Of a stretch of DNA of 36,783 nt, positions 2,448-36,783 are shown piece by piece. Under the pieces are notes generated by a model that saw only the letters and a list, made by a program, of their open reading frames with translations, was not told where the DNA came from and made no database searches. The DNA is from Gammaproteobacteria bacterium. GTDB taxonomy: Bacteria > Pseudomonadota > Gammaproteobacteria > Tethybacterales > Persebacteraceae. Each line of letters starts with the position of its first letter. Positions within the stretch are counted from its first letter, which is position 1. The DNA lies in assembly GCA_020027345.1 (NCBI GenBank), contig JAHRAH010000124.1, positions 1 to 36,783 on the forward strand, read 5' to 3'. A program made the translations under genes and the position numbers.

Positions 2448-3611
2448 ATGGCGGTTAAAACAACATTCCCCGGCGTTGATGCTTTGCGCCCGCCGCCGTG
2501 CGACGGGTTGGACATTGCGGCTTTTTCTCTCGTTTTCCGCAACACCACGACCTCCCACAAATTTCTATGGGGCCGGGCGCTTTTGCGGTCGCTTAAGAAA
2601 AACGGGTTTCAATCCTGTGAAATTTCCTTGCCGAGTATGGCGGCGGGCATGCTGGACGCCGCGCGCCGTCCCGTATGCGTTTTCCGCCTCCGGCTTTCCA
2701 AAGACGACAAAATTGACAAATTGTGGTTTCCGGAACTCGAGAGTATGCCGCATTGGAACAAGCGCATGCTGACGCGCTTGAAAGACGGCGACATTTTTTT
2801 GCGCCGCTCCCATAACATCCCCCGTGAAATTTCGGAGGGGTTGACAACATACGCTTCCCATTTGTTTATGTCCCCGTTTTTTGGCAATTCCGTTAAAGGG
2901 CTCGCCGGCCCGCCCAAATTCAGGAAAATTAGGGCGCTGGCCAAAGAACGCTTTGACGGCGAATTGCCGCCGCCTTATCGTTTTTCGGGCGCGGGCGGCG
3001 CGATTATCGTTCATCCCAAATGGGCGCAATATATCTCCCGCAATTTTGAGATTCTGGACTCGTGGATTATGTGGGAATTGGCGCGGCACCTTCAACAGAT
3101 AAATCCGAGCATTCCCGCGATTGTCTCAAAACTGGACGCAAAAGCTGCGCCGAACACCACGCGCCAAAAGAATTTTTGGCGGCGCGCGATGGCGCGCCGC
3201 CCCGGGCGGTTCCACTGCATTTACACCGGCGAAGCCATCGCCGATGACAATTTTGTCCTGGACCATTACATTCCGTGGAGTTTTGTCGCGCACGACAATA
3301 TGTGGAACCTTGTCCCCGTTAGCGACGCCGGCAACGAGGCAAAATCCGACAATTTGCCGGACAGCGGGGAATATTTCAACCACTTTGTGAATATGCAACA
3401 CATTGCAGTGCAATCGCTGCATGCTTTCCCCGACAAGACAAGGTGGGATGACATTTTTGAGCCGTATTTGACTGATTTGAATCTGGATGCGGCGCAAGCG
3501 GCGGCGGACAAATCGGCGCTTAGCGCCGCGCTTGCGGGGACAATTGAACCATTGCTTTCCATTGCCAAAACGCGCAACTTCGCGCACGATTGGGTGTTTG
3601 GCAAACGGTAA
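2448..3611 (+). CDS. HNH endonuclease domain protein
   Basis: A 387-residue protein with a C-terminal HNH nuclease domain. The core is Cys257 in CIYTGE, then LDHYIPWSF with Asp272-His273, then WNLVP with Asn287, and NEAKSDNLP with Asn296 and Lys299. This is the usual metal-dependent HNH arrangement, with Asn as the last ligand. The first 250 residues hold an N-terminal domain (FRNTTTSHKFLWG near residue 30) of the kind that precedes HNH in many restriction- or defence-type proteins. The gene appears leaderless. It ends 14 bases from the convergent PAPS-reductase-like gene. Closeness to that operon suggests, without proving, a common defence role. The nuclease class is confident; the target is unknown. 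Confidence 0.85.
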   Translation: MAVKTTFPGVDALRPPPCDGLDIAAFSLVFRNTTTSHKFLWGRALLRSLKKNGFQSCEISLPSMAAGMLDAARRPVCVFRLRLSKDDKIDKLWFPELESMPHWNKRMLTRLKDGDIFLRRSHNIPREISEGLTTYASHLFMSPFFGNSVKGLAGPPKFRKIRALAKERFDGELPPPYRFSGAGGAIIVHPKWAQYISRNFEILDSWIMWELARHLQQINPSIPAIVSKLDAKAAPNTTRQKNFWRRAMARRPGRFHCIYTGEAIADDNFVLDHYIPWSFVAHDNMWNLVPVSDAGNEAKSDNLPDSGEYFNHFVNMQHIAVQSLHAFPDKTRWDDIFEPYLTDLNLDAAQAAADKSALSAALAGTIEPLLSIAKTRNFAHDWVFGKR

Positions 3612-3625
3612 AGGGGATGTTTGTT

Positions 3626-5041
3626 TTAATCCGTGCAGTCGCAGGGGAGGGCGGAATCTTCGGCGCCGATTTGGGCGAGGGCGGCAACGGTGTGCGCTTC
3701 TGCGAGGCGGCGGTAGGACATTTTGCCGTTGATTCCCCAAAAGCCGATGAACGGTTTTTTTCCGGCGGTTTCGGCGTTCAGGATTTTTCGCCCTTCGCGC
3801 TTAAGGTCCCTGCCGTATTTGCTTTCCATTCCCGCCCACCAATGAATGTCGGCGGGGGTGTTCGGTTGCGCGCGCAGTTTTTTCGGCAGTTTTTCTTCGG
3901 CTTTTTCGCGGTTCGCCGTGATTTCCGCCAGCGTTTGCGCGCCTTTGAGAAAACAAAAGACGCAGTTGGAATAATTGAGTTGGGCGGGCAGGCGCAAGTC
4001 CCATTTTTGTTTTTCCCAAAAGGCGAAAACATCGGCTTTGCCCACTCCGATATCGGCGAGCGGGGCGTATACATATTCTCCCTCGGGCAGGACGGTGTGC
4101 GGGTCGGCGGCGGATTCGTATTCCCCGCGGTCAAAGTTGCGCGCTTTCATTCGCATAACGCGCGCCTGTTCGTCGGCGCGAAAGCCGACAAAGGCGGCAT
4201 AGTCCGCGCAGTCGTCGCCGGAAAGCGGAACGCGGTCGCCGATGCTTTTGCCTTGCAGCGTTTCATTGTGGAAAGGGTGCGCGGCTTGGGAATATTCGGC
4301 GAAGTTTTGCGCGGGGCGAAACCACGGGCGGCCGCGCACAAAAGCCGCCTTGTCCAAAAGGATTTCGTCCGGCGTGCCGCCGCGGTATTTGCGGTGCATT
4401 CGGATAACGGAATCGTCGTCCATCATTCCGCGCCCGTAATAATGCCCGAGCCGCCGCGTTTTCGGTTTCATCGCGAACCAGTCGCTCAGAAATTCGCGGG
4501 TAACGGTGATTTTCATCTGCACCGTGCAGATGCGCTGAAATTGGGTCGGCAAAAACCGCTGCCACGAGAGCAATTCTTCAAACACTTCCCCGCGGCAGTG
4601 GTAACCGTCGGGGTTGTTTTCGGAATATTCGGAGGGCAGCACAAGGCGGTAGGAAGGCAGGCGCGTCCATTCGCCGCCGATGACATCCTCGTAAGTTTGG
4701 AACTCCGTCCAGAAAAACGGCACGCCGTATTTTTGTTCGGTCAGCCGCTGGCAGCGGCGGACAAAATCGTAAGTGGCGGGGTGTTCCGCCGAGGTGTTGT
4801 TGAAGACGACGACATCGCCGCGCTCCGGCTGCAGTATGCCGTTTTCCAGCATTGTGAAGAGCAGCATCCCGCTGGAACGCCCGCCGGAAAACTTGACGAC
4901 ATGCGGCTGCCGCCGATGCTCGGCGGCGTCGTAATGGAAAGCATATTGTTTTGTCGGGTTGAAAGCGGGCGCCGCCGCCCGCTTCGCGCGGGGCGAAACT
5001 TTGAGCAGCGGAATATCCACCAAACCGTAAACGGGGCGCAT
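3626..5041 (-). CDS. PAPS-reductase-like PP-loop ATP pyrophosphatase
   Basis: A 471-residue member of the adenine nucleotide alpha-hydrolase fold. The PP-loop VVKFSGGRSSG is at 48-58, and NTSAEHPATYDF at 82-93 resembles the second conserved strand-loop of PAPS reductases. RICTVQMK follows (Cys182). A CVFC pair (Cys350, Cys353) could bind iron-sulfur or zinc, and the protein ends with CDC before the last two residues. At nearly twice the size of assimilatory CysH, and with no cys genes nearby, it more likely activates a substrate with ATP in a nucleic-acid modification or defence pathway, as the DndC and SspD proteins do in DNA phosphorothioation. That analogy is inference. Its start overlaps the stop of the 42-residue frame upstream (TGATG), implying translational coupling. 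It is the last gene of the operon that starts at 8782. Confidence 0.85.
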   Translation of the reverse strand: MRPVYGLVDIPLLKVSPRAKRAAAPAFNPTKQYAFHYDAAEHRRQPHVVKFSGGRSSGMLLFTMLENGILQPERGDVVVFNNTSAEHPATYDFVRRCQRLTEQKYGVPFFWTEFQTYEDVIGGEWTRLPSYRLVLPSEYSENNPDGYHCRGEVFEELLSWQRFLPTQFQRICTVQMKITVTREFLSDWFAMKPKTRRLGHYYGRGMMDDDSVIRMHRKYRGGTPDEILLDKAAFVRGRPWFRPAQNFAEYSQAAHPFHNETLQGKSIGDRVPLSGDDCADYAAFVGFRADEQARVMRMKARNFDRGEYESAADPHTVLPEGEYVYAPLADIGVGKADVFAFWEKQKWDLRLPAQLNYSNCVFCFLKGAQTLAEITANREKAEEKLPKKLRAQPNTPADIHWWAGMESKYGRDLKREGRKILNAETAGKKPFIGFWGINGKMSYRRLAEAHTVAALAQIGAEDSALPCDCTD

Positions 5042-5169
5042 CAGCCGGATTCTACCCCATTATCACCGGAGTCGCCAGAGTCGCCGGAAATGGCGGGGGC
5101 GATTTCCTCGGCAAGTATTTTTTTGACCCGGGCGGGCGGAAAATATCCGAGTGCGCGCCATGCGGACAT
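5041..5169 (-). CDS. Small conserved-looking protein, 42 residues, in the GHKL/PAPS operon
   Basis: It begins MSAWRALGYFPPARVKKI, followed by LAEEIAPAI and a Gly/Ser/Asp tail of SGD repeats. The ATG lies 26 bases after the preceding stop, and its TGA shares one base with the start of the PAPS-reductase-like gene. It fills the only gap in an otherwise overlapping operon. The frame stays open upstream into the preceding gene, but no better start exists. It could be a small subunit or just a coupling leader peptide. I recognise no family. Confidence 0.5.
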   Translation of the reverse strand: MSAWRALGYFPPARVKKILAEEIAPAISGDSGDSGDNGVESG

Positions 5170-5195
5170 AATCCCGATGCGCGCGAGCAGGGGAT

Positions 5196-5987
5196 TTAGC
5201 GTTTTCTTTCGCCGAACCCGGAATTGTCCAGCAAAAAGGAAACGATGCCGTCGCGCAGGTTGCGGTCGCCTATCACCGTCAGCCGGGATGCCATTTTGTC
5301 CGAAAGCAATTCCCAAACAGCCGGATTTTTGAGAAGCGCCATTGCGTTTTTTTCAATAGTTTCTTTCTCGCCGCCGATGTTTTCCGCGGCTTGGCGGGCG
5401 ATGTAATGCTGCCACCACGCGCGGGCGGGCGGGCAGTTTTGATAAACGCTGCGGGTTCCCCTTTCCAGCAAACCGGACAGGCGGCGCAAAAAAGCGCGCA
5501 CGCATTTGTCAACTGCGGCCGCCCTGCCGTCTCCGGTTTTGCGCAAAGCGGCGTCAATTTCCGTTGCGCCGTCGGTTTGCGCGCCGTTGGAGCCGGAAAT
5601 CAAATAACGGGGTTCTATTTTTTCGGCGGCAATCAGCCGGACGACGATGTAAGCCCACACCGCCGAACTGCAGGCGATGCCCGGCGTGATGGTTTTCCAA
5701 ACCTCCCACATTTGGGAAGAGGCATAATCGCACGGCTGGCGAAAATCCGCCGGGGAATATTTTTCCGGCTCCGCGGGAATCGGCGGGTCGGCGTCGCCGA
5801 TGACGATGTCTTCGTTTCCGGCGCATTGCCTTATGTTGTTTTCCAGCCACTGCACAAAGTCGCCGCCGCTACGGTCGCGCGCCGCTTGCAAAATTCCCAC
5901 TTGCATTTCGCCGCCGCGGTTTTTTATCGCCGCCGTTTGGAATTGGCGGAAAGCGTCGGCGCGGTAGCGCCTAATTGCCGTCATCAT
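5196..5987 (-). CDS. Uncharacterised protein, 263 residues, GHKL/PAPS operon
   Basis: The start is one of two adjacent ATGs (5987 or 5984) that overlap the end of the upstream gene, which fixes a start much shorter than the full open frame. The product is mainly alpha-helical, with no signal peptide or membrane segment. Features visible are MWEVWKTITPGIACSSAVWAY near the middle (an Ala/Ser/Trp-rich helix), LISGSNGAQ, and a C-terminal region with NCPPARAWWQHYIA. The ARAWW segment reminds me loosely of DUF6339-type proteins, but this is memory and was not checked. The overlap means it is co-translated with the 285-residue protein upstream, and the two may form a complex. Function is unknown. 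Confidence 0.75.
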   Translation of the reverse strand: MMTAIRRYRADAFRQFQTAAIKNRGGEMQVGILQAARDRSGGDFVQWLENNIRQCAGNEDIVIGDADPPIPAEPEKYSPADFRQPCDYASSQMWEVWKTITPGIACSSAVWAYIVVRLIAAEKIEPRYLISGSNGAQTDGATEIDAALRKTGDGRAAAVDKCVRAFLRRLSGLLERGTRSVYQNCPPARAWWQHYIARQAAENIGGEKETIEKNAMALLKNPAVWELLSDKMASRLTVIGDRNLRDGIVSFLLDNSGFGERKR

Positions 5988-6828
5988 CGTCGCCCAGGGA
6001 CGCGTCGTCAAAAATATGCGGATACAAAATCGTCGCCGCGAGTTCGGGCGAGAATTCTTCGTCCCCCCAATTCCCCGCGTTTTCGCGGGCGAGTTTGTCC
6101 GCGACGAGGCGCAGGTTAATATGCTCGCGCCAGTCGCCCGGATTTGGGTATTTGTCTTTAAGAATCTGAAAGGCGGCGCTGAGCGCGTGGGTGAGAATGC
6201 TGACACGGTGCCGCGCCTGCCCCGCCGGGGATTGCAGGCGGTCAAACAAATCGCCGCCGACTCTGACGCGAAAACGGAAACCGCCGGCGGCGTCTTCGGA
6301 AACGCGCATTTGCCCGTTTTCCAAATTTTCGCCTTTGTCAATAATCAGCAGCCCGCCGCTTTCGCCACCGAATCGCGCCCAGTCGTCGTAGGCGATAATC
6401 GCGCCTTCGGGAATGGTTATGCCGCCGTCCTGCCACAAGGGACCCAGCCCCGCGTTTTTTGCGGCGTTTTGGCTGAAAGATTTTTTTGCCAGAATGACGG
6501 GGCGAAACATCGGAGATTCCACTGCGTCGGTGTCGTCGCCGTGCCCGGATTCGGAATAGTCCACATCCTGCGAGCATTCCGGTTCGCGCGCGTCGGCGAG
6601 AAAAATGCGGCGGTACATCGTTGACGGCACGGAAACGATGCAGGCGAAAGCGGCGAAGCCCTCCCGCAACAAGCGCGCCACAAGACAGTCGCCAACAAGG
6701 CGGTGGCGCACCGAAACGGCGGCTGCGCCGGGCGTTCTGGCGACTTTTGCGGAATATTCCATTCCTTCGGCGTAATCCGCGCTGTCCGGGGAAAGAACCG
6801 GAAACGGAAACGATTTAATTTCCGGCAT
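5971..6828 (-). CDS. Uncharacterised protein, 285 residues, GHKL/PAPS operon
   Basis: I chose the ATG at 6828 because it overlaps the stop of the ATPase gene by 14 bases; the open frame extends further upstream only within the ATPase gene. The protein starts MPEIKSFPFPVLSPDSADY. It has an acidic linker (SGHGDDTDAVES) near residue 95 and a Gly-rich FGGESGGLLIIDKGE segment. A helix carrying LFDRLQSPAGQARHRVSIL follows, and it ends with a run of acidic residues (GDDDDGN). There are no transmembrane segments and no catalytic motif I can name. Because its gene overlaps both neighbours, it is probably an obligate partner of the GHKL ATPase and the 263-residue protein. Confidence 0.75.
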   Translation of the reverse strand: MPEIKSFPFPVLSPDSADYAEGMEYSAKVARTPGAAAVSVRHRLVGDCLVARLLREGFAAFACIVSVPSTMYRRIFLADAREPECSQDVDYSESGHGDDTDAVESPMFRPVILAKKSFSQNAAKNAGLGPLWQDGGITIPEGAIIAYDDWARFGGESGGLLIIDKGENLENGQMRVSEDAAGGFRFRVRVGGDLFDRLQSPAGQARHRVSILTHALSAAFQILKDKYPNPGDWREHINLRLVADKLARENAGNWGDEEFSPELAATILYPHIFDDASLGDDDDGN

Positions 6829-8782
6829 TTTCGTTTTCGGTTTTGGCGGCGCTTTGCGGCGCCTTGCGGCGGTAGAGGTCGACGACCAGCGCGTATATTT
6901 TTTCCCCGGCGGGCGGGCGGTAATCGGCTTCCATTCCGTAATGTTTGCCGGATTTCCATTCGCCCAGCCGCGCGCCGACAATTTCCCCTTTTTCGTTTTT
7001 TACATATTTTTCCCCGGGCACTTCGCCGCCGTTGACGCGCACGGCGGAAAAAACGACCGTCCGGTGTTCGCGCCCGGCGCAGGTGATGTCTTCGCCGCCG
7101 TCCAGCGAAAGGCGCATTTCCACATCCTCGCAGTCCTCGGCGGGCGCAAAAACCGCCGCCAATGTTCCTTCCCGAATTCTGCGGCTGGATATTTTCGCGC
7201 TGAGGGCGCTGCCGGAGCGGTTCGCCTTGCGCGAGCCGGTTTGTTTTTTACTTTTGCTTTTTTCGTCGCCGCCCGCCTGCCTGCCGCCTATTTTTTCAAT
7301 TTGTCCGCGCGCCTTGGGCTTTTCGCCGCGCGCGGATTCCGCAGCGAATTCAATCGGCATAATGTCGGCGGGGGAAAACGACTCGTCGCTTTTTTCCTCC
7401 GTCAGCCCTTTTATTTTTTCGCGCAGTTCGTCCAGTAGCGCGCGCAGTTTTTGCCTGTCTTCCGCGCTTGGCAGGCGCATGACTTTAATTTTGTTGTGCA
7501 GCGGGGTTTCCGCCAACTTGAAGAGGGTGTGCGCTTCCCCCGATGTTTCGGCGTCCACCAGCAGCAGGGCGTCAAACGGTTTGCGGTCGCCGAAATCGGC
7601 CTGCCAAAGCCTCGGCGCTTCGCCGGTTATCCACATTCCGTTTCTGCAAAGCGCCACGCGCTTGCCGTCGCCGCCCTGCCTTATCATCAATTTAATTTCG
7701 CCGCGCGAAGTGGCGACGGTATGCGGCGAGCCGTCCGTCAAAGTGCAGTAGGAATTCCATACTCGCCGCCCGGAGGGAAAGCCGTCTTTGCCGCGCATGT
7801 TTTCCTTGCGTTTTTCCAAAATGGCGCGCAGGTCGCCGCGGTTCAAAACCCGCGTTTTGCCGCCGCGCGTTATTTCCACTCGCAGTTTTTCCCTGTCCAC
7901 CGCGACATAAAAATTAAGCGCCGCCTCGCGCAGGATAACTTCCTCAACATCGCGCTCGCCGCCGAAGTCGTTAAAAGCGGCGACGGCGACGACCGAGCCG
8001 CTGCCCCATTCGTTTTTAATCCATTCCATCTTTGGCAGCAGCAGCGGCGGAATGTCCGCTTTGCGGGGGAAGTCAAAGCGGGCAAAATTCAATTTGTCCT
8101 CGTTAATGCGCCGGACATAATAACCGTCCTTGCCCAGCGCGTACGGTTTGCCGCCGTATTTTCCGGCGTGCGTCGCCAGCACCGCATGCCCGGAAAACAT
8201 CATCTCGCCGGCCGCGGATACGCCGCCGTAAAAAGCGTAACGCAAGCGCGAAAGAGCGAAGGCGGTCAAATGCCCGTTGCCGAAAGCGCCGCGGGATTCT
8301 TCGCCGCTTTGCTGGCTCACGCCGTCGCCGAGCATTGCGCCCAAACGGGGCGCGTCAAAACCGACGCCGTTGTCCATCACAAACAAAACGGATGCGTCTT
8401 CTTTTTCCGAGTGCTTGTGCAGCGAATCGGCAATGCCCCGGGTCAGGTCGTTCAAGTCCCCCCGCATTGCGCTGGCAAGCGCGGCTTTGTATTCCGGCAT
8501 TCCGGGGATTTCCGCGAGTTTGCGCCGTTCCACGACAAAACGGGCGACGGCGGTGTTTCTGCCGGCGCTAACCAAAGCGGCGTCCAGCGCGTTTTGCACC
8601 AGTTCGCGCACGCAACTGGACGGTTCGGCGCTGAACGAGGATTGCGAGGAGGCGGTGAATCCTTCCACCGTCCCCGGCGACGGCGGAAAAATCAGTTTTG
8701 CGGCGCCGTCGGTTGCGGGGGACGGTTGCGCCGCTTTGTTTGCGCGCTTGGCGCGGTTTTTGTCTTTGCGCCTTTTTGCCAT
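6815..8782 (-). CDS. GHKL (Hsp90/MutL/MORC-like) ATPase, first gene of a putative defence operon
   Basis: A 655-residue cytoplasmic protein with an N-terminal Bergerat-fold ATPase. The N-box is VRELVQNALDA (Glu60, Asn64, Asp67), G1 is MDNGVGFD (Asp137 to Asp143) and G2 is RGAFGNGHLTAF (164-175). It is not a sensor kinase: there is no phospho-acceptor His domain and no membrane segment. It is closer in layout to Hsp90-, MutL- or MORC-type ATPases, some of which occur in restriction-like operons. A basic N-terminus (MAKRRKDKNRAKR) and a Lys/Ser-rich linker at about 490-530 precede a beta-rich C-terminal domain. The ATG at 8782 follows a TATAAT box by eight bases, so the mRNA should be leaderless. 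The next gene overlaps its stop. Partners downstream are two unknown proteins, a mini-protein and a PP-loop enzyme. Confidence 0.88.
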   Translation of the reverse strand: MAKRRKDKNRAKRANKAAQPSPATDGAAKLIFPPSPGTVEGFTASSQSSFSAEPSSCVRELVQNALDAALVSAGRNTAVARFVVERRKLAEIPGMPEYKAALASAMRGDLNDLTRGIADSLHKHSEKEDASVLFVMDNGVGFDAPRLGAMLGDGVSQQSGEESRGAFGNGHLTAFALSRLRYAFYGGVSAAGEMMFSGHAVLATHAGKYGGKPYALGKDGYYVRRINEDKLNFARFDFPRKADIPPLLLPKMEWIKNEWGSGSVVAVAAFNDFGGERDVEEVILREAALNFYVAVDREKLRVEITRGGKTRVLNRGDLRAILEKRKENMRGKDGFPSGRRVWNSYCTLTDGSPHTVATSRGEIKLMIRQGGDGKRVALCRNGMWITGEAPRLWQADFGDRKPFDALLLVDAETSGEAHTLFKLAETPLHNKIKVMRLPSAEDRQKLRALLDELREKIKGLTEEKSDESFSPADIMPIEFAAESARGEKPKARGQIEKIGGRQAGGDEKSKSKKQTGSRKANRSGSALSAKISSRRIREGTLAAVFAPAEDCEDVEMRLSLDGGEDITCAGREHRTVVFSAVRVNGGEVPGEKYVKNEKGEIVGARLGEWKSGKHYGMEADYRPPAGEKIYALVVDLYRRKAPQSAAKTENENAGN

Positions 8783-26599: not shown

Positions 26600-29500
26600 T
26601 TAACGGCGGAGGCGGGGGGTTTTGGGGTTTTGTTTTCGGCGGTTTTTGGGGGGGGGTTGGGGGGATGATTTTTGGGGTTGCTTTTGGGTTTGTTGTTTTT
26701 GGGGGAGGGCGGGGGACGGTTGGGGTTTTGTTGTGCGGAGGCGGGGGCGGCGGTATGCTTTTGGTGCTGCCGCTTTTGGCGTTGTTGCTTTGGGGGTTGG
26801 CGGTTGCGGGGTTGCCTTTTCCGCTTTCTCCTCTTTTTCCGCTTTCGCCTCTTTCTCGTTACACCTCTCCAGAGGTGTAACGCATTTTTTGTTGGCGGCG
26901 TCGGGGGCGCTTTTAATTTGAGCGGGCGGGGACGCCCGCTCTTTTTGGGGCGTTACACCTCTGGAGAGGTGTAACGAGACATCAACTTCTATTGTTGCCG
27001 TCGTTGTTGCCGTTGCTGTCGCATCCGCTGTTGCTGTTGCTGTCGCTGTTGTTGTTGCAGTTCCCACTGTTGCGGTTGTGGGGGTTGGGGATTTTAGGGC
27101 TTTGCCTACTGCTTTGCTGGCTTCTTTGCCTTGGAGTCGGCCGGTGCCGGGGGGGAGGGGGATTACTGTGGCGGCTATGGTGGCGAACTTTGTTTGGCGG
27201 GTTCCGTTTAGGGTGTAGGCGTAGGAGAAGATGTGGTTGAAGGATTCGTTGGCGGCGCTGGGGGTGCCGCTGAGTATTACGCCGGCGGCGGGGGGGGTTA
27301 CGAACACATTGCAGAAGACGCCGCTGCCGCAGTGTTGGAAGGTGTTGGTGATGCCGGGAGTGAACACTATGCCGCCGAATTGGGGGACGAATATTGTGTG
27401 CGGGTTGGGGCGGATGAGGGCGTTTGCCGTGAGCGTCAGGCGGACATTGCGCACTTCAAAATCCTTCGGGGGGACGACCGTTACCAGCAGGTGATGGCGG
27501 AGTGTTGTTGTCGCATCCGCGCCGGGGACGCGGTAGGCGTAGGAGGCGAAGAAGGCGCCGAGGGCGGAGGGCGCGCCTTCGTAGTTTATGAATCCCCCTT
27601 GCGGGATGATATGGAACGCGCATGCCAATCCCGGCGGGCATTCGCGCCGTTCGGAGAAATTTGCGATTCGCACTCCGCGTTCGCCGCCGCTCGGGAGCAT
27701 AATAATGTGCAGTTCGGGGGGGCTGATATTTGCGACGCCCTGCGGGAAATGCGAAATGTCGTGCAGGGTGACATCCACGCCCTGCGTCAGCGTGAGCGTC
27801 GCGTTGCCGGCGCTGAGCGGGGCGTAGGCGTTTGCGGTTATGGTGAAGAGGACGGTCGCCGGCGCGGAGGCGGGGTTGTTGTCGTCGGCGAGGAGGAAGC
27901 CGTGGAAGACGCCCGGAAAGCCGTTGAACGGCGCGTAGCGCAGGTAGACGGTGTTGCCCACCAGAAACACTTCGTTCTGCGGCGCCGTGAGGGAGTAGCC
28001 AAAGCCCGCAGTCGGGTGGCCGCCGCCGACGGAGACAGTCCCCAGCCGCACGGAGACGCTGACTGTCGCCGCCGCCACCGTGATTTCCAAATCGGCGACG
28101 ACGGGGGGGATGTCAATCACTTCGGCGAAGACCGTCCACTGGCGGCGGAAAATCGGCTCTGTCGTCCCCAATCTTACCCAGATGACTTCCAGCCGCGATT
28201 GAAAGGTCGTCGCTTGCGTCGGCGTGCCGCGCATGCGGACGCCGTTGTTAATCACAAAGCGGTTGTCCGGTCCCAGGCGCGCCCCCTGAAAGAATACGCA
28301 GGTCAGCCCCGGGGCGCAGCCGATGAGGCTTTGCCCGGAGCCGAAGTTTTCTTCGCCGCCGCCTTCGTAGACGAAGACGACATCCAGCCCGCCCGGCGGC
28401 AGCGGCACGCCGACGGTCATCTCCGCGCGCACGGAGGCGAGCGCGGTAATCACCGCAAACGAGCTCACCGCGACGGTGAACGGCGGCAGCGTGACCGGCG
28501 GGGTGTTCGCCGCGTCGTCGTCCACGACCGCCCGCGCGACGATATTGCCGCCGATGCTCCGGTTGGCAATGTCGTAAAACACGAAAACGGTATTGCCGCG
28601 GAAGGAAACCTCGCTGTTCGCCGAGAAGTAACGGTAGTCGCCGCCGGCGGTGAGAAAGCCGCCGCCGGCGGATATCGTCCCCACTTCGGTGAGAATGCGC
28701 GCGGTCGCGTTCGTTACGGTGACGGCGAGCGCGGCGGTTATCGGCGGCGGCGCGACGACCGTCACCGGGAAGGCGAGCGTCACCGGCGGCGTGTAGTCGT
28801 TCTCGTCGTCGGCGACGACTGTTGCCGTGACCGTCCCCGTTTGCGGGCGGCGGAAGTTCATCACGGCGGTGTTGCCGGCGAATGTCAGCCACTCTTCGTC
28901 GGAATAAAAGCGGTATCCGCCGCCGGCGAGCTCGCCGCCGGAAGCGGCGGCCGTCCCCAGCGTTATCGGTAAATAAGTGGTCGCTTGGGCGACTGTGACG
29001 GTAAACCCCGCGCGCATCGGCGGCGGCAGCTCGTAGCGGAGGAAGACGGCGGCGGTGGCTGTGCCCACTTGATTCACCCCGCGCGAAAGCAGATAGCGGA
29101 AGACAGTGGCGCCCGCTCCCGGCGGGCTGAGCGCGCCGCGCAGGTGGATGTTCTGCCTGTCAAAGGTTTCGCGAAAGAAGCAATCCAGTTTCGGCGGGCA
29201 GTCGGCGAGCGAGAGCGTGGTGAATTCCAGCGGCCCCGCGCCCGTTATCGGCACGGGAAAGCCGTCCAGCAGCGGCGCGAAGCCGCCCAGCGTCAGCGTA
29301 ATCGTCGCCGTCCCGCCGTGGATCGGCGGGAGGACGGAGACGAAAACGATGCCGCGCAAGCCGTCAAATTGGATTCCGGCAAAATACCTGCCGACGACGG
29401 TCGGCGTCCCCGTGTAGTGGAAGCCGCTGAATCCGAGGGTGTTGAGAGTGGCCGTGCAAGTAAGCCCGGGAATGCTGCAAACAAACTGGTTGTCCAATTC

Positions 29501-32500
29501 CACAACCGTCGGCTGCCCGCTTTGGGGGATGAAAACCGTCCTGCCGCCGGGCGGGAGGGCGACGCTGACGGTCATAAAGGAGGCAATCCCGCCGGGACGG
29601 ACGGGGGCGATGGCGGCGGCGGAGACCGTGAGCATCGCCGTCGCCGGCCGCGTGTAGGTGTTGTCGTCGTCGGCGATGACCGTCGCCGAGACCGTCGCCG
29701 GGTCGGCCAGCGAGACATACACACTCCCGTTGACGACGGCGAATTCGGAATCGCCGCTGACGGAGAGGGAGTAGCCGCCGCCGGCGAAAGGCACCCCCCC
29801 GCTGAGCGCGAGCGATGCGCGCGCCGAAACCCTCGCCGAGACCTGCGGCGAAAAGCCCAGCGAAAAAGTGAGCGGCGGCGGGGCGAGAACGCTGAGGAAG
29901 AGCGTCGCCCGCGCTGTCAGGTTTTGCCGCCCGTCTTCGTCGTAGGAAAAGCGGATGTGGTGGACGAAACTGCCGGGCGCCCCCGGATTGTCGCGGTAGA
30001 CGAAGCCGTAAAAGGGCTCGCCCGTGGAATGGTCGTGCGGGTCGCAAACGAGCCCGGCGGGCAGCGTATCGCAGTCAAAGTTTTCGCTGACTTGTTCGGG
30101 GACATCCCCGGCGAAGGGAATGGTCGCGTTTATCCCCGCTTGCGGCAGCAGCATCCCGGCGGTCAGCGTCAGCGAAGTGTTGCCCGGGCCGAAATCGGCG
30201 AAGTCGGTTACGGTGATGCTGAAGATGGCGGCGTTGCCGCCGGTGAAGGGATTGCCGTCATCCGCAAAAACAATCTGCGTCAGCGTCACCAGCCCCGGCG
30301 AGAAGAACCAAGCAGTCGGCCCGGCAAAGGAAACCTGCGGCGCGAATGTCGTGTAGGAGTAGTCCCCGCCCGGCGGCAAGCCCCCGCCGAAAGCGGTGGC
30401 GACGCCGATTTGCGTGCGGCTGTTCGCCAGTATCGGGCTCGCCGTCACGGTAAAGCGCGTCGTCAGCGGCGGCGCATACACAATCTCCACGCGCATCCCC
30501 CCGACGACCCCGCCGAAGGAAGCGCCCAGAAACACCGTCTTCGGCGCGGGGAAGGGCAAGGCGGCGATGCTGTATTTGTATGCCACACCCTGGTTGATGG
30601 CCGTCGCCTGCAGGGCGCAGGGGATTTGTTCGCTGCGGCAGGAACGCAGGAGAGTGACAGGCCCGGGAGCGCCCCCGCTGCGGGGGAGGATAACCTCCCG
30701 CGACTCGGCAAAAGGCACCCCGGCCGTGACAGTAATGCTCGCCGTCCCCAGCATAAAGGGCGCGTCGGCAAAGGCGGAAACGGTGAAGAACGCCGTCCCC
30801 GGCTCGCTCAGCGGCTCGGTATCGTCGGCGAGCAGCGTCGCCGTAATCGTCGCCGGCGCGTTCAGCGAAACAAAAACCGAAGCGTTGCGAAAAGCCGCAA
30901 AGGGCGAGAGCGAAGTGAGCCGGTAGGCAGTCCCCGGCGCGAGCGTCCCCCCGCCGATGGAGACCGTCCCCGCAAAAACCGAAATCCGCCCCAAAACCTC
31001 CGCGCCGTTCGGAAAAGCGGAAACCGTCACCGGCGGCGGATGCACAATAAAGAGTATCGTCCCCGTAACAGTCGCCCCCCGGCTCACATAACCGTAAATG
31101 TTCGGATAGCCGCCGAAGCGGCCAATGCTGCGCGCCGGAACGCCCCCCGCCACAAACATCTGCCGGTCAAATGTCGTGCGGAAAATGACATGTCCGTTTT
31201 GGTCCAAGCCGACCGAAGCCCGCACCCTGCCCGGATTGCAATTCAAACCGTTCGGACAAGCGTCGGCGATGACAAAGCCCGCCGTCGCCGCCTCGCCCGT
31301 GCGCGTGATGCTCAGCTGCGTCTGCGGCGCGGCGAAATCCACCGTCACCGAAAGCGTCGCCCCGCGAATGGAAATCGGCAAAGGCGCAAGTTCGCTGACC
31401 GAAACCGTAAACACAACAGTCGCCGGTTCGGTGGAATCCTCGTCGTCGTTCGCAAACGCCGTCGCCGTAAGCGTCGTGCGCGCGTCAACGGACGCGACGA
31501 CGGCCCTGCCGAGTATTACGATGCGCGGCGTCGGCGAGGAAAGGGAATAGCCCGCGCTGCCGTCGTCCAGCCGCCCGCCGGCGATGGAAAGCGTCCCCAC
31601 CCGCGAAGAAACCCGCGCCGACGCGACGACATCCGCCGGAAAATACCCAAACTGCAAAGGCGGAATAATCACGCTCATCGCAATCGTCCCCGTCAGCGTT
31701 AACCCGCGCGAAACAAAAGCGACTTGAAACCGGTCGTAATATCCCGCCAGCGTCGGCGTCCCCGCAAAGAGCACTCCGTGATCGCCGGGAAAGCCGGGAC
31801 GATTCACGCCGGTGCAGGTGCGCAGACCGGGAACGCAGGCAAGTTCCACGATAATCTTGCGCTCCGCCTCTATCCCCCCGCGCGGGAAAAAGAGGGTGAC
31901 AAAATCTATCGTCCCGCCCTGCGCGTTTGTGGAACGCAAAGGAAAATGTATGGACGCCGTCACCGTCGCGTTGCCGATGGAAATCGGCGCGTATTCCGCG
32001 GCGGTGAATGTTACGGTAAACCGCGCGTCGTCCGTAAACGCGCTGCCGTCCGCAACCGTAACCGAAACCGTGTGCGTAACCGGCAACGGACTGTAAAAAC
32101 GCACAGTATTCCCGCTCAGCAAAAACGGCGGAGACGCAAAATAGGAATAGTCGTCGCCCGCCGCAAGCATCCCCCCGCTTGCGGAGATAGTCCCCAAAGT
32201 AACGGTCGCATTCACGGACGCAGTAAAGTCAAAAGAAGCCGAAAGCGGGCGCGGCAAAACTTCCGCCGTTACAGTCAAAGTCCCCGGCGGTGTGGAAGAA
32301 TCAAAATCGTTTGCGATTATCGTAAATGCAACCGTCGCCGGCTCCTCCGCATATATGTAAAGCGAATTCGCGCGCAAGGAAACCGTAATGCTCGCCGTCC
32401 CCGGCGCCGGAGATTGCACCGAAAGCGTGTATGCATTCGGCGGCGCATTCGGTATCCCCCCAAAACCGGAAACCGTCCCCAGCAAAGAATCCCCCCGCGC

Positions 32501-35500
32501 TTCCCCCGCCGAAACCGCGGCCGACAAAGAAAGCGGCAAAACAATCACCGATATATGCATCTCCGCCACGAAATTCACCGGCGGCGCGGAGCTGTCCTCC
32601 CCCGTCCACCGCGCGAAACGCTCGAGACCGTTGCTCCGCTCCCGCGCAATCCCGCTCACGGCCACAAACGACGATTCCGCCGGGCTCCGCACTTCTTCGC
32701 ATCGCATCCCCGCAATCGCGCAAATGAAGTTGATATTGCCGATGCCAAACTCCGTCGGCTTGTTCCCCCCGCCCAAACCCGCCGAAAGCGTCACCAGCGG
32801 CTGAAAATACCCCGCAGTAACAACTATCGTCGCATTCAATCCGAACGCCGGCGAAAGAACAGTAAAGAAAGCAGTCGCCGGCGCAGTGTTCAAATGGTCG
32901 TCGTCCGCAAGAACAGTCGCCGTAAACCGCGCGCGCAAACCCTCCCGCGCAACTATCACTTCCCCGCGCGCATTAATCGCCGCCGCCGCCGAAGGTTCCG
33001 TTTGCACCGACAAAGAATAGCCGCCGCCCTCCGTCAAATACCCCCCCGAAAGCGAAACAGTCGCGACCGTCAGCGCAAACCCCCGAAATATCGGATTCGC
33101 CCGCCGCGAAACGCTCAGCGAAAATATCGGCGGGTCGGCGAAAACAATCGTAACCGCCGCAGTCGCCCGCCCCCGTTCCCCCGCCCGCGAATCGGCAAAG
33201 CCGACGGTCACCGAAACAATAAACGGCAAAGCCGCAGAAGCCGTCAAATGCAAAACACCGTCCGCAGCCAGCGAAACCTCCGCCGGCAACGCAGGAGAAA
33301 GCCGCGTATAACTGTGCGGCAACACCCCGCCGCGTCCGTCAAAAACCGCAAGCGTCGCCCGCGAAAGTATCCGCGTCGTAACAGTCGCCCGCGCCGCCGA
33401 AACCGAATACGAAAACACGCTTACCGAAAAAGAAAATGTCGCCGGAGCAGTCCGCGCATTGTCGTCGTCCGCAACAACAGTCACAATAACCGTCCGCGCA
33501 GTGTCCGCCGAGAAATACCCGACCCCCGATGTGAATGTAAACTCCGATGCATTAACCGAAACACTGTATTCCCCGCCCGGCAAAAGAAATCCGCCGCCCA
33601 CAGAAAAAGCCCCCAGCGAAACCGAAAGCGAAGCATGCGCCGCCCCCGCAAGCGCGGAATCAAAAACAACCTCCGAAGGCGAAACGACAGTAATAAATAT
33701 CCCCCCGGCGACGCTGCCGTTAAAAGTGTATATGTGATAAATCTCCTGCGGCGCCGGGGGGACGCCGCTGTATCCCGCGCGGCTGCTCGTCGCGTTGTGA
33801 TTGAAATCGCATTGCAGCAAAGGAAAATTGCAAGCCGAAGGCAAAACCGCCGCAGTCGGCGTAATCCCCGAACGCGGAACAACCGCCGCAAAGCCCGCCG
33901 GCAAACGCGAGCCTGCCGTCATCGTCAGCGTCAGCGTCCCCGCCCGCAGCGGCGCGAAACTCCCCGCCGTCAGCGAAAATGTCAAACGCACATCATCGGT
34001 GTGCGCGCTGCCGTCCGAAACGGTTATCGCCAAAGTGACAGTCCGCGGCGCAAAATTATAATAATAGATTGCATTCCCGCGCGCATGCAAAGGCGGCGAA
34101 GTATTAATCGCATAATCATTCCCTTCCGGCAAAAGCCCGCCCGCCACCGAAACCGTCCCCAATTGCAAAGTCGCATTCGCCTCCGCAGAAACCGTAACCG
34201 AAAAAGAAGCCGAAAGCGCGCGCGGCGAAACGGTCACAGTAAACACAACCGTCCCCGCCGGAGTAATGTCCGCAGAACGGTCGGTGAAATCATTCGCAAT
34301 AATAGTCGCAACAACAGTCGCCGGCAACTGCGCGCGAACAAAAACCGAATTCCTCCGCAGCGAAATAACAACCCCCGAATCATCCGCATCCGGAGATTCC
34401 AAACCCAAAGTGTAACGGTCCGGCGGCGGATTCGCCAGGCCCCCGCCCACCGAAACAGTCGCCAATAAAATATCCCCCCCGCGCGCTTCCACCGCCGCAA
34501 GCAAAGGAAAGAACAGCGCGCTAACAGGCAAAGGCGGCAGCGTCTCCAAAAAGGCGTCAGCAAGAACAAACCCCGGAGGATCCGCCGCGTCGCCAAACTC
34601 AAAAATAGCAACCTGCATAATCCCGGCGGCGCGCGATTCCCCCCCGCGAAAATACATCTCCCCCCGCGCCCGATTCTCCGCCGTCAATTGCGCGTTGCCG
34701 CAAAAAATCCCGGCCGGGCATTGCATCCCCCCGCGAAACCGGCCGGTCACCGGTATCAATCCGTGCTCGCTAAACGCCGTCAATGTCGCCGTAGCTTGCA
34801 AAGAAACCCCCGCCGTCACAGTAAGCGTCGCGTTGCCCGCCGTCAGCGGCGCATAAATGCGCACAGAAAGAAATACCGTCGCCGGCGAAGTGTTCGCATG
34901 GTCGTCCTCGGCGACGACGGTCGCAATATGCGCGTTGCGCCCGGGAGCGTTGCCCGTGAACACCCGTATCTCGCCGTCGTCGTTTATCCCCGAAATCGCC
35001 CCGCTGTCGTTGCCGCTGCTGCTTTCAAAAAAGACGCTGTAATCCCCGCCCGCCGTCAAATACCCCCCGGAAAAAGAAACAGTCGCAATCGTGATTTCCA
35101 CTATGCCGCCGGTCGTCAAAAGCGCCGTCGGCCCCTGCCGCAAATCCGCGGCTATCGGCGGCGGGTCGGCAAACTCCACAACAACAGTCCGCCGCAACTC
35201 CAAAGGCGGCTCCTGAGAATCCCGCGCGACAACACGCGACTCCGAACGAACCGGCCGCGCGATGGACGCCGTCAACAGTAAAAATCCCTGCGGAGACAAA
35301 CTTATCTCCGGCAAATGCGGCGACGCCAAAGAAAGCGCAAGCGGCGCAATCCCCCCCTGCAAAACAAAACGCGCAAGCGTCGCCGCCGAAACCACCCGCG
35401 TCGTCACAATCGGGCGAAAAACAGTCAGCGAAACCGCAAACGGTTCCGCAATCCGAAAAGCAAAAGAAACCGTAACCGGCAAAGTGTTCGGATGACGGTC

Positions 35501-36783
35501 GTCCGCAGTAAACACCGCCGTGAACACCCCCGCCGCAGTCGGCGTTATCCGAAACCGCCCGCCCGAAACCCCCGAAAGCGGAAAACCAACAACGCCGCCG
35601 TCGTAACGGTATCCCTGCCCCTGCGAAACATATCCCCCCGACGCCGAAAGCGTTATCACCGTTTGCGAATCGCTGCGCGTCAAAACCGTCCGCGAAAGAA
35701 CCGTCAGCGTAATCGCCGCCGGGTCCGCAAAAAATATGGTAACAGTCGCCGTCGCCCGCTCCGCCGGAGAAGAAGAATCCGCCCCGCCGACAGTAACCGA
35801 AACCGTCCGCGGATCCGCAAGCGAAGAAGTCAAAAACAAAATCCCGTTATCCGCCAAAGAAATCCCCGAAGGCAATGAAGAAAGCGGCGAATACGAATGC
35901 GGCGGCAAACCCCCCAGCGCCGCAAAAACCGCCAATGTCGCCGCGCTAACAATATGCGTAGTAACAGTCGCGCGAATGTCCCCCGCCCCCAGCGCAAACC
36001 GGTCCGCAATCTGCAAAGTCAAAAACAAAGTCGCCGCCGGTGTGTTCGCATGCGAATCGTCCGCAAGCACAGTCGCCGTCAACAGTCCCCCCGCCCCCGC
36101 AGCCGAAACCGTAACCGCCCCCGCCGCATTAATCCCCGCCGCGCCAAAACGACCGTCGCTTTCCAAACGAAAAGCATATTCCCCGCCCGCCGTCAAATAC
36201 CCCCCCGACGCCGAAACAGTCGCCGCCGTCAATGTCCGGTTAATCAAAACAATATCCCCCCCCCGCCGAATATGCAGCGTCAAAAGCGGCGGGTCGACAA
36301 AAACAATCGCAACCGCCGATGTCAAATGCCGCGGCGGATTTTGCGAATCGCTCGCGCGAACAGTCGCCAAAACCGTTTGCGGATTGTTTATCGCCGAAGT
36401 CAAAAGCAACCGCCCGTCCGCAGCCAAAGAAATCCCCGATGGCAAATTAGAAAGCGCCGCATAACTATAAGGCAAAACCCCGCCCACCGCCGCAAACAGC
36501 GCAAGAGTCCCCTCCGAAACAATCCGAGTAGTAACCGTCCCGCTAACCCCGCTCGCCTCCAACGCAAAAGAATCAATCACCCGCACCGTAACAAAAACAG
36601 TCCCCGGCGATGTGTTCGCGTGATTGTCATCCGCAACAACAGTCGCCGTAAGAAAACCAACAACCACCCCCGCCGAAACCGTAACAACCCCCTCCGCATT
36701 AACCCCCGCATTTGCCAAAACCCCATCGCTCAACAAACGATAAGAATACTCCCCGCCTTCGTTTATAAATCCGCCCGCGGCGA
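26600..36783 (-). CDS. Giant Ig/cadherin-like repeat protein, 5' end outside the window (partial)
   Basis: An uninterrupted frame of over 3,390 residues that continues past the window edge; the in-frame TTG at 36736 is internal. I count 17 module starts of the type SxSGGYLTAGGxYxx, each followed by a segment like ADDDHANTSPATV, resembling acidic calcium-binding loops of cadherin-like folds. Four modules carry a second unit (VTTRIVSxATL, LPSGISLxxDGxL, FADPP). Twelve others carry a He_PIG-like unit with a cysteine pair, C-P-x-G-L-x-C, and a GTPT-like turn. Beta-rich, low in charge, it is probably a secreted or surface adhesin. From about 27150 to the stop the modules end in an Ala/Thr run and a Lys/Pro/Gln-rich tail without sorting signal. 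Its true N-terminus and export route are unknown. Confidence 0.85.
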   Translation of the reverse strand, partial: AAGGFINEGGEYSYRLLSDGVLANAGVNAEGVVTVSAGVVVGFLTATVVADDNHANTSPGTVFVTVRVIDSFALEASGVSGTVTTRIVSEGTLALFAAVGGVLPYSYAALSNLPSGISLAADGRLLLTSAINNPQTVLATVRASDSQNPPRHLTSAVAIVFVDPPLLTLHIRRGGDIVLINRTLTAATVSASGGYLTAGGEYAFRLESDGRFGAAGINAAGAVTVSAAGAGGLLTATVLADDSHANTPAATLFLTLQIADRFALGAGDIRATVTTHIVSAATLAVFAALGGLPPHSYSPLSSLPSGISLADNGILFLTSSLADPRTVSVTVGGADSSSPAERATATVTIFFADPAAITLTVLSRTVLTRSDSQTVITLSASGGYVSQGQGYRYDGGVVGFPLSGVSGGRFRITPTAAGVFTAVFTADDRHPNTLPVTVSFAFRIAEPFAVSLTVFRPIVTTRVVSAATLARFVLQGGIAPLALSLASPHLPEISLSPQGFLLLTASIARPVRSESRVVARDSQEPPLELRRTVVVEFADPPPIAADLRQGPTALLTTGGIVEITIATVSFSGGYLTAGGDYSVFFESSSGNDSGAISGINDDGEIRVFTGNAPGRNAHIATVVAEDDHANTSPATVFLSVRIYAPLTAGNATLTVTAGVSLQATATLTAFSEHGLIPVTGRFRGGMQCPAGIFCGNAQLTAENRARGEMYFRGGESRAAGIMQVAIFEFGDAADPPGFVLADAFLETLPPLPVSALFFPLLAAVEARGGDILLATVSVGGGLANPPPDRYTLGLESPDADDSGVVISLRRNSVFVRAQLPATVVATIIANDFTDRSADITPAGTVVFTVTVSPRALSASFSVTVSAEANATLQLGTVSVAGGLLPEGNDYAINTSPPLHARGNAIYYYNFAPRTVTLAITVSDGSAHTDDVRLTFSLTAGSFAPLRAGTLTLTMTAGSRLPAGFAAVVPRSGITPTAAVLPSACNFPLLQCDFNHNATSSRAGYSGVPPAPQEIYHIYTFNGSVAGGIFITVVSPSEVVFDSALAGAAHASLSVSLGAFSVGGGFLLPGGEYSVSVNASEFTFTSGVGYFSADTARTVIVTVVADDDNARTAPATFSFSVSVFSYSVSAARATVTTRILSRATLAVFDGRGGVLPHSYTRLSPALPAEVSLAADGVLHLTASAALPFIVSVTVGFADSRAGERGRATAAVTIVFADPPIFSLSVSRRANPIFRGFALTVATVSLSGGYLTEGGGYSLSVQTEPSAAAAINARGEVIVAREGLRARFTATVLADDDHLNTAPATAFFTVLSPAFGLNATIVVTAGYFQPLVTLSAGLGGGNKPTEFGIGNINFICAIAGMRCEEVRSPAESSFVAVSGIARERSNGLERFARWTGEDSSAPPVNFVAEMHISVIVLPLSLSAAVSAGEARGDSLLGTVSGFGGIPNAPPNAYTLSVQSPAPGTASITVSLRANSLYIYAEEPATVAFTIIANDFDSSTPPGTLTVTAEVLPRPLSASFDFTASVNATVTLGTISASGGMLAAGDDYSYFASPPFLLSGNTVRFYSPLPVTHTVSVTVADGSAFTDDARFTVTFTAAEYAPISIGNATVTASIHFPLRSTNAQGGTIDFVTLFFPRGGIEAERKIIVELACVPGLRTCTGVNRPGFPGDHGVLFAGTPTLAGYYDRFQVAFVSRGLTLTGTIAMSVIIPPLQFGYFPADVVASARVSSRVGTLSIAGGRLDDGSAGYSLSSPTPRIVILGRAVVASVDARTTLTATAFANDDEDSTEPATVVFTVSVSELAPLPISIRGATLSVTVDFAAPQTQLSITRTGEAATAGFVIADACPNGLNCNPGRVRASVGLDQNGHVIFRTTFDRQMFVAGGVPARSIGRFGGYPNIYGYVSRGATVTGTILFIVHPPPVTVSAFPNGAEVLGRISVFAGTVSIGGGTLAPGTAYRLTSLSPFAAFRNASVFVSLNAPATITATLLADDTEPLSEPGTAFFTVSAFADAPFMLGTASITVTAGVPFAESREVILPRSGGAPGPVTLLRSCRSEQIPCALQATAINQGVAYKYSIAALPFPAPKTVFLGASFGGVVGGMRVEIVYAPPLTTRFTVTASPILANSRTQIGVATAFGGGLPPGGDYSYTTFAPQVSFAGPTAWFFSPGLVTLTQIVFADDGNPFTGGNAAIFSITVTDFADFGPGNTSLTLTAGMLLPQAGINATIPFAGDVPEQVSENFDCDTLPAGLVCDPHDHSTGEPFYGFVYRDNPGAPGSFVHHIRFSYDEDGRQNLTARATLFLSVLAPPPLTFSLGFSPQVSARVSARASLALSGGVPFAGGGYSLSVSGDSEFAVVNGSVYVSLADPATVSATVIADDDNTYTRPATAMLTVSAAAIAPVRPGGIASFMTVSVALPPGGRTVFIPQSGQPTVVELDNQFVCSIPGLTCTATLNTLGFSGFHYTGTPTVVGRYFAGIQFDGLRGIVFVSVLPPIHGGTATITLTLGGFAPLLDGFPVPITGAGPLEFTTLSLADCPPKLDCFFRETFDRQNIHLRGALSPPGAGATVFRYLLSRGVNQVGTATAAVFLRYELPPPMRAGFTVTVAQATTYLPITLGTAAASGGELAGGGYRFYSDEEWLTFAGNTAVMNFRRPQTGTVTATVVADDENDYTPPVTLAFPVTVVAPPPITAALAVTVTNATARILTEVGTISAGGGFLTAGGDYRYFSANSEVSFRGNTVFVFYDIANRSIGGNIVARAVVDDDAANTPPVTLPPFTVAVSSFAVITALASVRAEMTVGVPLPPGGLDVVFVYEGGGEENFGSGQSLIGCAPGLTCVFFQGARLGPDNRFVINNGVRMRGTPTQATTFQSRLEVIWVRLGTTEPIFRRQWTVFAEVIDIPPVVADLEITVAAATVSVSVRLGTVSVGGGHPTAGFGYSLTAPQNEVFLVGNTVYLRYAPFNGFPGVFHGFLLADDNNPASAPATVLFTITANAYAPLSAGNATLTLTQGVDVTLHDISHFPQGVANISPPELHIIMLPSGGERGVRIANFSERRECPPGLACAFHIIPQGGFINYEGAPSALGAFFASYAYRVPGADATTTLRHHLLVTVVPPKDFEVRNVRLTLTANALIRPNPHTIFVPQFGGIVFTPGITNTFQHCGSGVFCNVFVTPPAAGVILSGTPSAANESFNHIFSYAYTLNGTRQTKFATIAATVIPLPPGTGRLQGKEASKAVGKALKSPTPTTATVGTATTTATATATADATATATTTATIEVDVSLHLSRGVTPQKERASPPAQIKSAPDAANKKCVTPLERCNEKEAKAEKEEKAEKATPQPPTPKATTPKAAAPKAYRRPRLRTTKPQPSPALPQKQQTQKQPQKSSPQPPPKNRRKQNPKTPRLRR
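26857..26976. repeat. Dispersed composite repeat B, intact copy 2, inside the giant gene
   Basis: Palindromes at 26857-26882 (CC centre) and 26951-26976 (GG centre) enclose the TTTTAATTTGAGCGGGCG/CGCCCGCT core (26911-26946), as at 23481-23611. Read on the minus strand, it is translated in frame in the C-terminal tail, giving LSRGVTPQKE and CVTPLERCNE. Confidence 0.8.
26990..27065. repeat. Imperfect triplet/hexamer tract in the tail of the giant gene
   Basis: On the plus strand, mixtures of GTT, GCC, GCT and GTC recur with a three-base period (GTTGCCGTTGCTGTC). On the minus strand this encodes the Ala/Thr run TATATATADATATATTT. Because units are multiples of three, length changes would keep the frame. 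Confidence 0.65.

What the first reader, a model, noticed from the sequence alone, without database searches (positions are those of the whole stretch)
3626..8782. Five-gene GHKL ATPase / PP-loop enzyme operon as a candidate new defence or nucleic-acid modification system
Seen: five minus-strand genes, four of them overlapping a neighbour by 1-17 bases. The order is GHKL ATPase (N-box Glu60/Asn64/Asp67, G1 DNGVG, G2 GAFGNG), 285-residue unknown, 263-residue unknown, 42-residue frame and PAPS-reductase-like enzyme with SGGRSSG. Known: PP-loop enzymes of this group work in DNA phosphorothioation (DndC, SspD), and GHKL ATPases of MutL/MORC type occur in restriction-like operons. Inference: an ATPase-plus-PP-loop module without DndA/B/D/E partners that would act on DNA or RNA, possibly using sulfur chemistry readily available in a sulfur oxidiser. 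I do not recognise this gene set as a named system.
Basis: partly seen in the sequence, partly recalled or inferred. Interest (0 to 1): 0.78.

Follow-up and report, generated by a model that had tools for sequence, protein, structure and literature searches.

The report
GHKL-based DNA phosphorothioation defence system
A sulfur-oxidising bacterium carries a mobile four-gene cassette that, judging from the genes it travels with in at least 13 bacterial phyla, most likely puts sulfur into the DNA backbone to mark self DNA for anti-phage defence, using a kind of ATPase I found in no published system of this sort.

Summary
The operon is real, but it has four genes, not five: the 42-residue frame is the frameshifted tail of the 263-residue gene. 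A (GHKL) and B match the PADLOC candidate PDC-M33A/B; C is a remote PDC-M33C relative. Elsewhere PDC-M33 cores sit with a C5-cytosine methyltransferase and/or Vsr (9 of 9 loci). Here that place is taken by a PP-loop enzyme. The A-B-C plus PP-loop set recurs: a scan for the PP-loop gave 80 loci in at least 13 phyla, and 33 of 36 well-covered loci hold A, B and C. The four proteins diverge in step, and the PP-linked ATPases form one clade. About 34 of 80 loci add a DndA/SspA-type cysteine desulfurase. Others add known phosphorothioation partners: TIGR04096 methyltransferase, NF045808 PT-DNA endonuclease, PbeA/PbeC, DndB, DUF262 proteins. No DndC was found beside it. Best reading: a new type of DNA phosphorothioation defence in which a GHKL-B-C core replaces the DndDE or SspBC core. 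No paper describing it was found. Sulfur in DNA and phage defence are inferred, not shown.

The parts
6815..8782 (-). Gene A: GHKL ATPase, 655 aa, PDC-M33A-like (paraMORC kind)
   Evidence: ORF; PADLOC PDC-M33A 9.7e-23; motifs conserved in 32 homologues; profile hits Hsp90 and MORC3/4 structures
5971..6828 (-). Gene B: 285 aa, PDC-M33B-like, predicted beta-rich fold with helical C-terminus
   Evidence: PADLOC PDC-M33B 9.9e-7; AlphaFold2 pLDDT 90.0; only generic Foldseek matches
5196..5987 (-). Gene C, first part: 263 aa, remote PDC-M33C (DUF6339) relative, all-helical
   Evidence: Homologues in most PP-loop loci; the relative L031 matches PDC-M33C at 0.008 only; AlphaFold2 pLDDT 91.9, no PDB match
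5041..5169 (-).
   Evidence: Matches the tail of intact C in L039, local score 110
3626..5041 (-). PP-loop enzyme, 471 aa, DndC/SspD-like role; SGGRSSG, C172, C360, C363, C467, C469
   Evidence: PADLOC SspD 6.8e-9, BrxP 7e-5; PF01507 below cut-off; conserved Cys; 80 loci
2448..3611 (+). Convergent HNH_4 nuclease gene, candidate effector of the cassette
   Evidence: PF13395 3.4e-10; homologues beside the PP-loop gene in L041 and L113

Best explanation
The cassette is a DNA phosphorothioation (PT) based self/non-self defence system of a type not yet described. Proposed steps: (1) a cysteine desulfurase takes sulfur from cysteine; many relatives encode it in the operon, in the window it would be a housekeeping enzyme. 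(2) The PP-loop enzyme, in the DndC/SspD role, activates the DNA phosphate with ATP and passes sulfur to the backbone. (3) A (GHKL ATPase clamp) with B and C finds and holds the target sequence, doing the job of DndD-DndE or SspB-SspC. (4) Exchangeable nucleases attack DNA without the mark: DUF262 proteins, PbeA-type, PT-binding HNH, and in the window perhaps the HNH_4 gene. Shown here: the gene set, its recurrence, joint divergence and PT-specific neighbours. Inferred: sulfur in DNA, the role of A-B-C, and phage defence.
For: 33 of 36 loci with 8 kb on both sides hold A, B and C; joint divergence, 0 of 500 permutations as high; DndA/SspA-type desulfurase in about 34 of 80 loci; TIGR04096 at 581-621 bits, cut-off 150, and NF045808 at 262-313 bits, cut-off 180; PbeA 526 bits, PbeC and DndB; DUF262 genes, a domain found in the PT-sensing nickases SspE and DndI (PMC11662687); the methyltransferase place in sister systems is taken by the PP-loop enzyme; the RxCTxxMK stretch aligns with DndC.
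Against: No chemical or phage data. The window itself lacks a desulfurase and a DUF262 gene, and its C gene is frameshifted. The PP-loop protein is only remotely like DndC and SspD. NF045808 enzymes restrict PT-DNA and may be foreign-PT effectors rather than partners. PbeA/PbeC are part of a module that also occurs without PT genes. No nickase was recognised in B or C.
Confidence: 0.72

Rival explanations
1. PT is made, but by the PP-loop enzyme and desulfurase without A-B-C. A-B-C are the restriction or sensor module, as proposed for paraMORC ATPases in R-M operons.
For: In sister loci A-B-C sits with a methyltransferase, which needs no helper to modify DNA; the two Dcm-PP-loop fusions lack A-B-C.
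Against: As described in the papers read, Dnd and Ssp modification uses partners beside the PP-loop enzyme; PbeA-type restriction genes sit downstream of A-B-C as a separate module in 7 loci.
Confidence: 0.33
2. The PP-loop enzyme puts sulfur or another group on a DNA base, not on the backbone; the cassette is an R-M system with a new base modification.
For: It replaces a base methyltransferase on the same core; PP-loop fused to an intact-looking C5 methyltransferase in L097.
Against: Recurring neighbours are annotated as phosphorothioation genes.
Confidence: 0.12
3. The PP-loop enzyme thiolates RNA or serves sulfur metabolism, and the linkage to A-B-C is defence-island clutter.
For: PP-loop enzymes with cysteine desulfurases commonly thiolate tRNA (general knowledge); weak PF01507 match.
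Against: Same-strand linkage to A in 72 of 73 rows that have A, over at least 13 phyla; joint divergence.
Confidence: 0.04

Closest known systems
PDC-M33 (PADLOC candidate defence system; A, B, C = PDLC04582, PDLC04583, PDLC04584)
   Same: Same A-B-C order; A 9.7e-23, B 1e-6
   Different: PDC-M33-type loci found here carry a C5 methyltransferase and/or Vsr and no PP-loop gene; the PP-linked A proteins are a separate clade
Dnd system (DndA-E with DndFGH, DndI or PbeABCD)
   Same: DndA-type desulfurase, PP-loop with RxCTxxMK, DndB in two loci, TIGR04096, PbeA and PbeC neighbours
   Different: PP-loop is no DndC (E 0.058); GHKL-B-C in place of the DndD ABC ATPase and DndE
Ssp system (SspABCD with SspE or SspFGH)
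   Same: Nearest PADLOC match of the PP-loop enzyme is SspD, 6.8e-9; DUF262 genes
   Different: Only 33.8 bits to SspD; no SspB or SspC match among the proteins scanned
BREX type 4
   Same: A methyltransferase replaced by a PT apparatus on a defence core (PMC12839542)
   Different: No BrxC, PglZ or BrxL match; PP-loop only 7e-5 to BrxP
paraMORC restriction-modification operons (Iyer 2008, PMC2292703)
   Same: GHKL ATPase with DNA methylase and Vsr in sister loci
   Different: The section read names helicases, methylases and endonucleases as partners, no PP-loop enzyme

Membership tests
PDC-M33 | PDC-M33A, B and C genes in order | tested here: inconclusive
   A and B match; the window's C has no match, its relative L031 only 0.008
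Dnd system | DndC PP-loop enzyme | tested here: not met
   PADLOC DndC 0.058, against 5.4e-115 for the true DndC on contig C79
Dnd system | DndD ABC ATPase and DndE | tested here: not met
   No window operon protein matches them; no DndD in the own genome, 86.5% complete
Dnd or Ssp system | Cysteine desulfurase DndA/SspA | tested here: inconclusive
   Absent beside the window operon; in about 34 of 80 relatives; other PF00266 proteins in the genome
Dnd or Ssp system | Phosphorothioate in DNA | not testable with these tools
   Needs LC-MS/MS or PT mapping
Ssp system | SspD with SspB and SspC | tested here: not met
   SspD remote (33.8 bits); no SspB or SspC match in the operon
BREX type 4 | BrxC, PglZ, BrxL with BrxP | tested here: not met
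   Only a 7e-5 BrxP match
GHKL ATPase | N box, G1 and G2 motifs | tested here: met
   E60, N64, D67, DNGVG, GAFGNG conserved in 32 homologues
Assimilatory CysH | PAPS reductase family match with cys genes | tested here: not met
   17.3 bits against cut-off 22.5; no cys genes recognised in the window by reading

The most novel reading that the evidence does not exclude
A separate DNA phosphorothioation machine beside Dnd, Ssp and BREX type 4: a GHKL clamp ATPase with two accessory proteins of unknown function directs sulfur insertion into the DNA backbone. The same core can carry either 5-methylcytosine or phosphorothioate chemistry and be coupled to interchangeable PT-sensing nucleases, and it has spread horizontally across bacterial phyla.
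Probability: 0.55. Interest if true: 0.88.

Novelty: new variant of a known kind. Interest (0 to 1): 0.8.

Why it matters
Known phosphorothioation systems build on DndDE or on SspBC-type proteins (also in BREX type 4). A GHKL-based one would show PT recruited to an unrelated DNA-handling engine, would give MORC-type bacterial ATPases a testable task in DNA marking, and would provide a clean pair of sister systems (5mC versus PT on the same core). It would also put a concrete mobile gene set behind the DNA phosphorothioation enrichment reported for sponge metagenomes (PMC5099237).

Tried and rejected
Assimilatory CysH: rejected. Plain Dnd, Ssp or BREX-4 membership: rejected. The 42-aa frame as a gene: rejected. 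Nuclease or nickase fold in B or C: none recognised by Foldseek; PDB sequence searches for PP-loop, B and C gave nothing usable. Phage or plasmid origin: only distant PAPS-reductase-like hits. Literature on PDC-M33, DUF6339, and PT with GHKL: nothing describing this system. The BREX type 4 PT paper PMC12914056 is not held.

Full report
What is there. The five frames exist at the stated coordinates on the minus strand. Gene A (6815-8782) is a GHKL ATPase: Pfam sees it only weakly, but PADLOC finds PDC-M33A at 9.7e-23 and a homologue profile hits Hsp90 and MORC3/4 structures. Gene B (5971-6828) is PDC-M33B-like. Gene C (5196-5987) has no match by itself. The 42-aa frame is not a gene: it continues gene C in another frame, matching the tail of the intact C of the nearest relative L039. 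The operon therefore has four genes, A-B-C-PP, with C broken by a one-base frameshift whose reality I cannot check. The PP-loop enzyme (3626-5041) is weakly like SspD and BrxP. A convergent HNH_4 gene (2448-3611) ends 14 bases from it.

The core has another life. PDC-M33A was sought in 399 genomes of the phylum; 10 had it, the window's among them. In the nine other loci A is followed by two genes of B and C size, and a C5-cytosine methyltransferase and/or a Vsr endonuclease lies in the locus, consistent with the paraMORC R-M operons of Iyer 2008 (PMC2292703). In three members tested C carries DUF6339. None of these nine loci has the PP-loop gene.

The PP-loop version recurs. The window PP-loop protein found relatives of 42-51% identity in five other genomes of 369 searched in the class; A-B-C homologues lie next to it in several. 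A scan of 84,980 species genomes gave 80 loci of 32-61% identity. Of 36 rows with at least 8 kb on both sides, 33 hold A, B and C; the exceptions are L058 (no C found), L076 and the degenerate L113. A and PP share the strand in 72 of 73 rows that have A (these 85 rows include the window and a few contigs fetched twice). Distances among A, B, C and PP are congruent (Spearman 0.61-0.76, 0 of 500 permutations as high). PP-linked A proteins form one clade against the others (98*, quick tree, with some long branches), and close neighbours in that clade often come from different phyla, which points to horizontal transfer. The loci cover at least 13 phyla. Many record names belong to sponge-symbiont MAG projects as far as I know them (not tested here), with vent, mussel-symbiont and rumen genomes among the rest.

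Sulfur and DNA. In about 34 of 80 loci a cysteine desulfurase lies in the cassette, usually directly after the PP-loop gene; the two tested score about 440-500 bits to DndA/SspA. Clustering of all neighbours brought out a short list of recurring accessory genes, most of them linked to DNA phosphorothioation: TIGR04096 methyltransferase (two tested, 581 and 621 bits against cut-off 150; cluster in 6 loci), NF045808 PT-DNA-binding endonuclease (three tested, 262-313 bits against 180; cluster in 5 distinct loci), PbeA (526 bits in L081; cluster in 7 loci), PbeC-type ATPase after it in L104 and L047, and DUF262/GmrSD_N proteins in about 16 of 80 loci. DndB-like genes lie upstream in L057 and L078. 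DUF262 plus HNH proteins such as SspE and DndI are PT-sensing nickases (PMC11662687). No DndC homologue was found in these loci; SspB, SspC and DndD were not sought there individually.

Chemistry of the PP-loop protein. Across the family C172 in RxCTxxMK, C360 and C363 are 99-100% conserved, C467 and C469 97%. The RxCTxxMK stretch aligns with DndC, and the CxxC resembles the CWTC of DndC by eye, so an Fe-S or metal site like that of DndC is plausible (inference). Two Dcm-PP-loop fusions without A-B-C exist (L097 from a Bathymodiolus symbiont, L112 cut by the contig end); L097 keeps the motifs of both halves.

Mechanism, committed. I take A-B-C to be the DNA-scanning ATPase core that guides PT insertion by the PP-loop enzyme, with sulfur from the operonic or a housekeeping desulfurase. 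The window genome has several PF00266 proteins, and IscS serves DndBCDE elsewhere (PMC11662687). Restriction would be by exchangeable nucleases. The main uncertainty is whether A-B-C writes or restricts. The swap of methylation for PT on one core parallels what Rakesh et al. describe for DndDE-type cores, in a paper whose main text does not mention GHKL or MORC (PMC10853773). BREX type 4 is a second precedent (PMC12839542).

B and C. AlphaFold2 models are confident (pLDDT 90.0 for B, 91.9 for C). B is beta-rich with only generic matches. C is all-helical with no PDB match at E<=0.001. Neither looks like a known nuclease.

Novelty. PADLOC holds the A-B-C triplet as a candidate; its combination with a PP-loop enzyme and desulfurase, and its PT context, appear in no paper found (preprints and most subscription papers are not held). 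I file it as a new variant of a known kind (PT-based defence), possibly a new type.

Noticed in passing
L021 (own genome contig C79): 2598-3755, 3782-5527, 5866-7113, plus strand: The same MAG carries a true DndC (383 bits), a DUF262 Orf5/HEC-06-type gene and a DndB (PF14072) on another contig; no DndD was found in the genome.
   Followed up: partly
L097 5593-8136; L112 1586-3580: C5 cytosine methyltransferase fused to the PP-loop enzyme in symbiont genomes, without A-B-C; L097 lies among topoisomerase, ssb and HU-like genes as in an integrative element.
   Followed up: partly
L111 6129-15089; L114 433-9182: Two A copies, with C genes and one PP-loop gene between them, in tandem: apparent duplication of the core.
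   Followed up: no
L067 14074-16746 (same as L032): Three tandem NF045808-type PT-DNA-binding HNH genes beside a PT cassette, which is odd because such enzymes would be expected to cut PT-marked DNA.
   Followed up: no
L020 6778-15779: A distant GHKL core with Z1, MzaD-like and C5 methyltransferase genes, linking PDC-M33-type cores to MZA-type systems.
   Followed up: no
L044 18012-20042 and relatives: Unknown 660-680-aa protein with sigma-70 region 4 and RNA polymerase alpha-CTD-like parts, between the cassette and PbeA in several loci.
   Followed up: no
window 26600-36736, minus strand: A 3378-residue repetitive reading frame that looks like a large adhesin-type surface protein.
   Followed up: no
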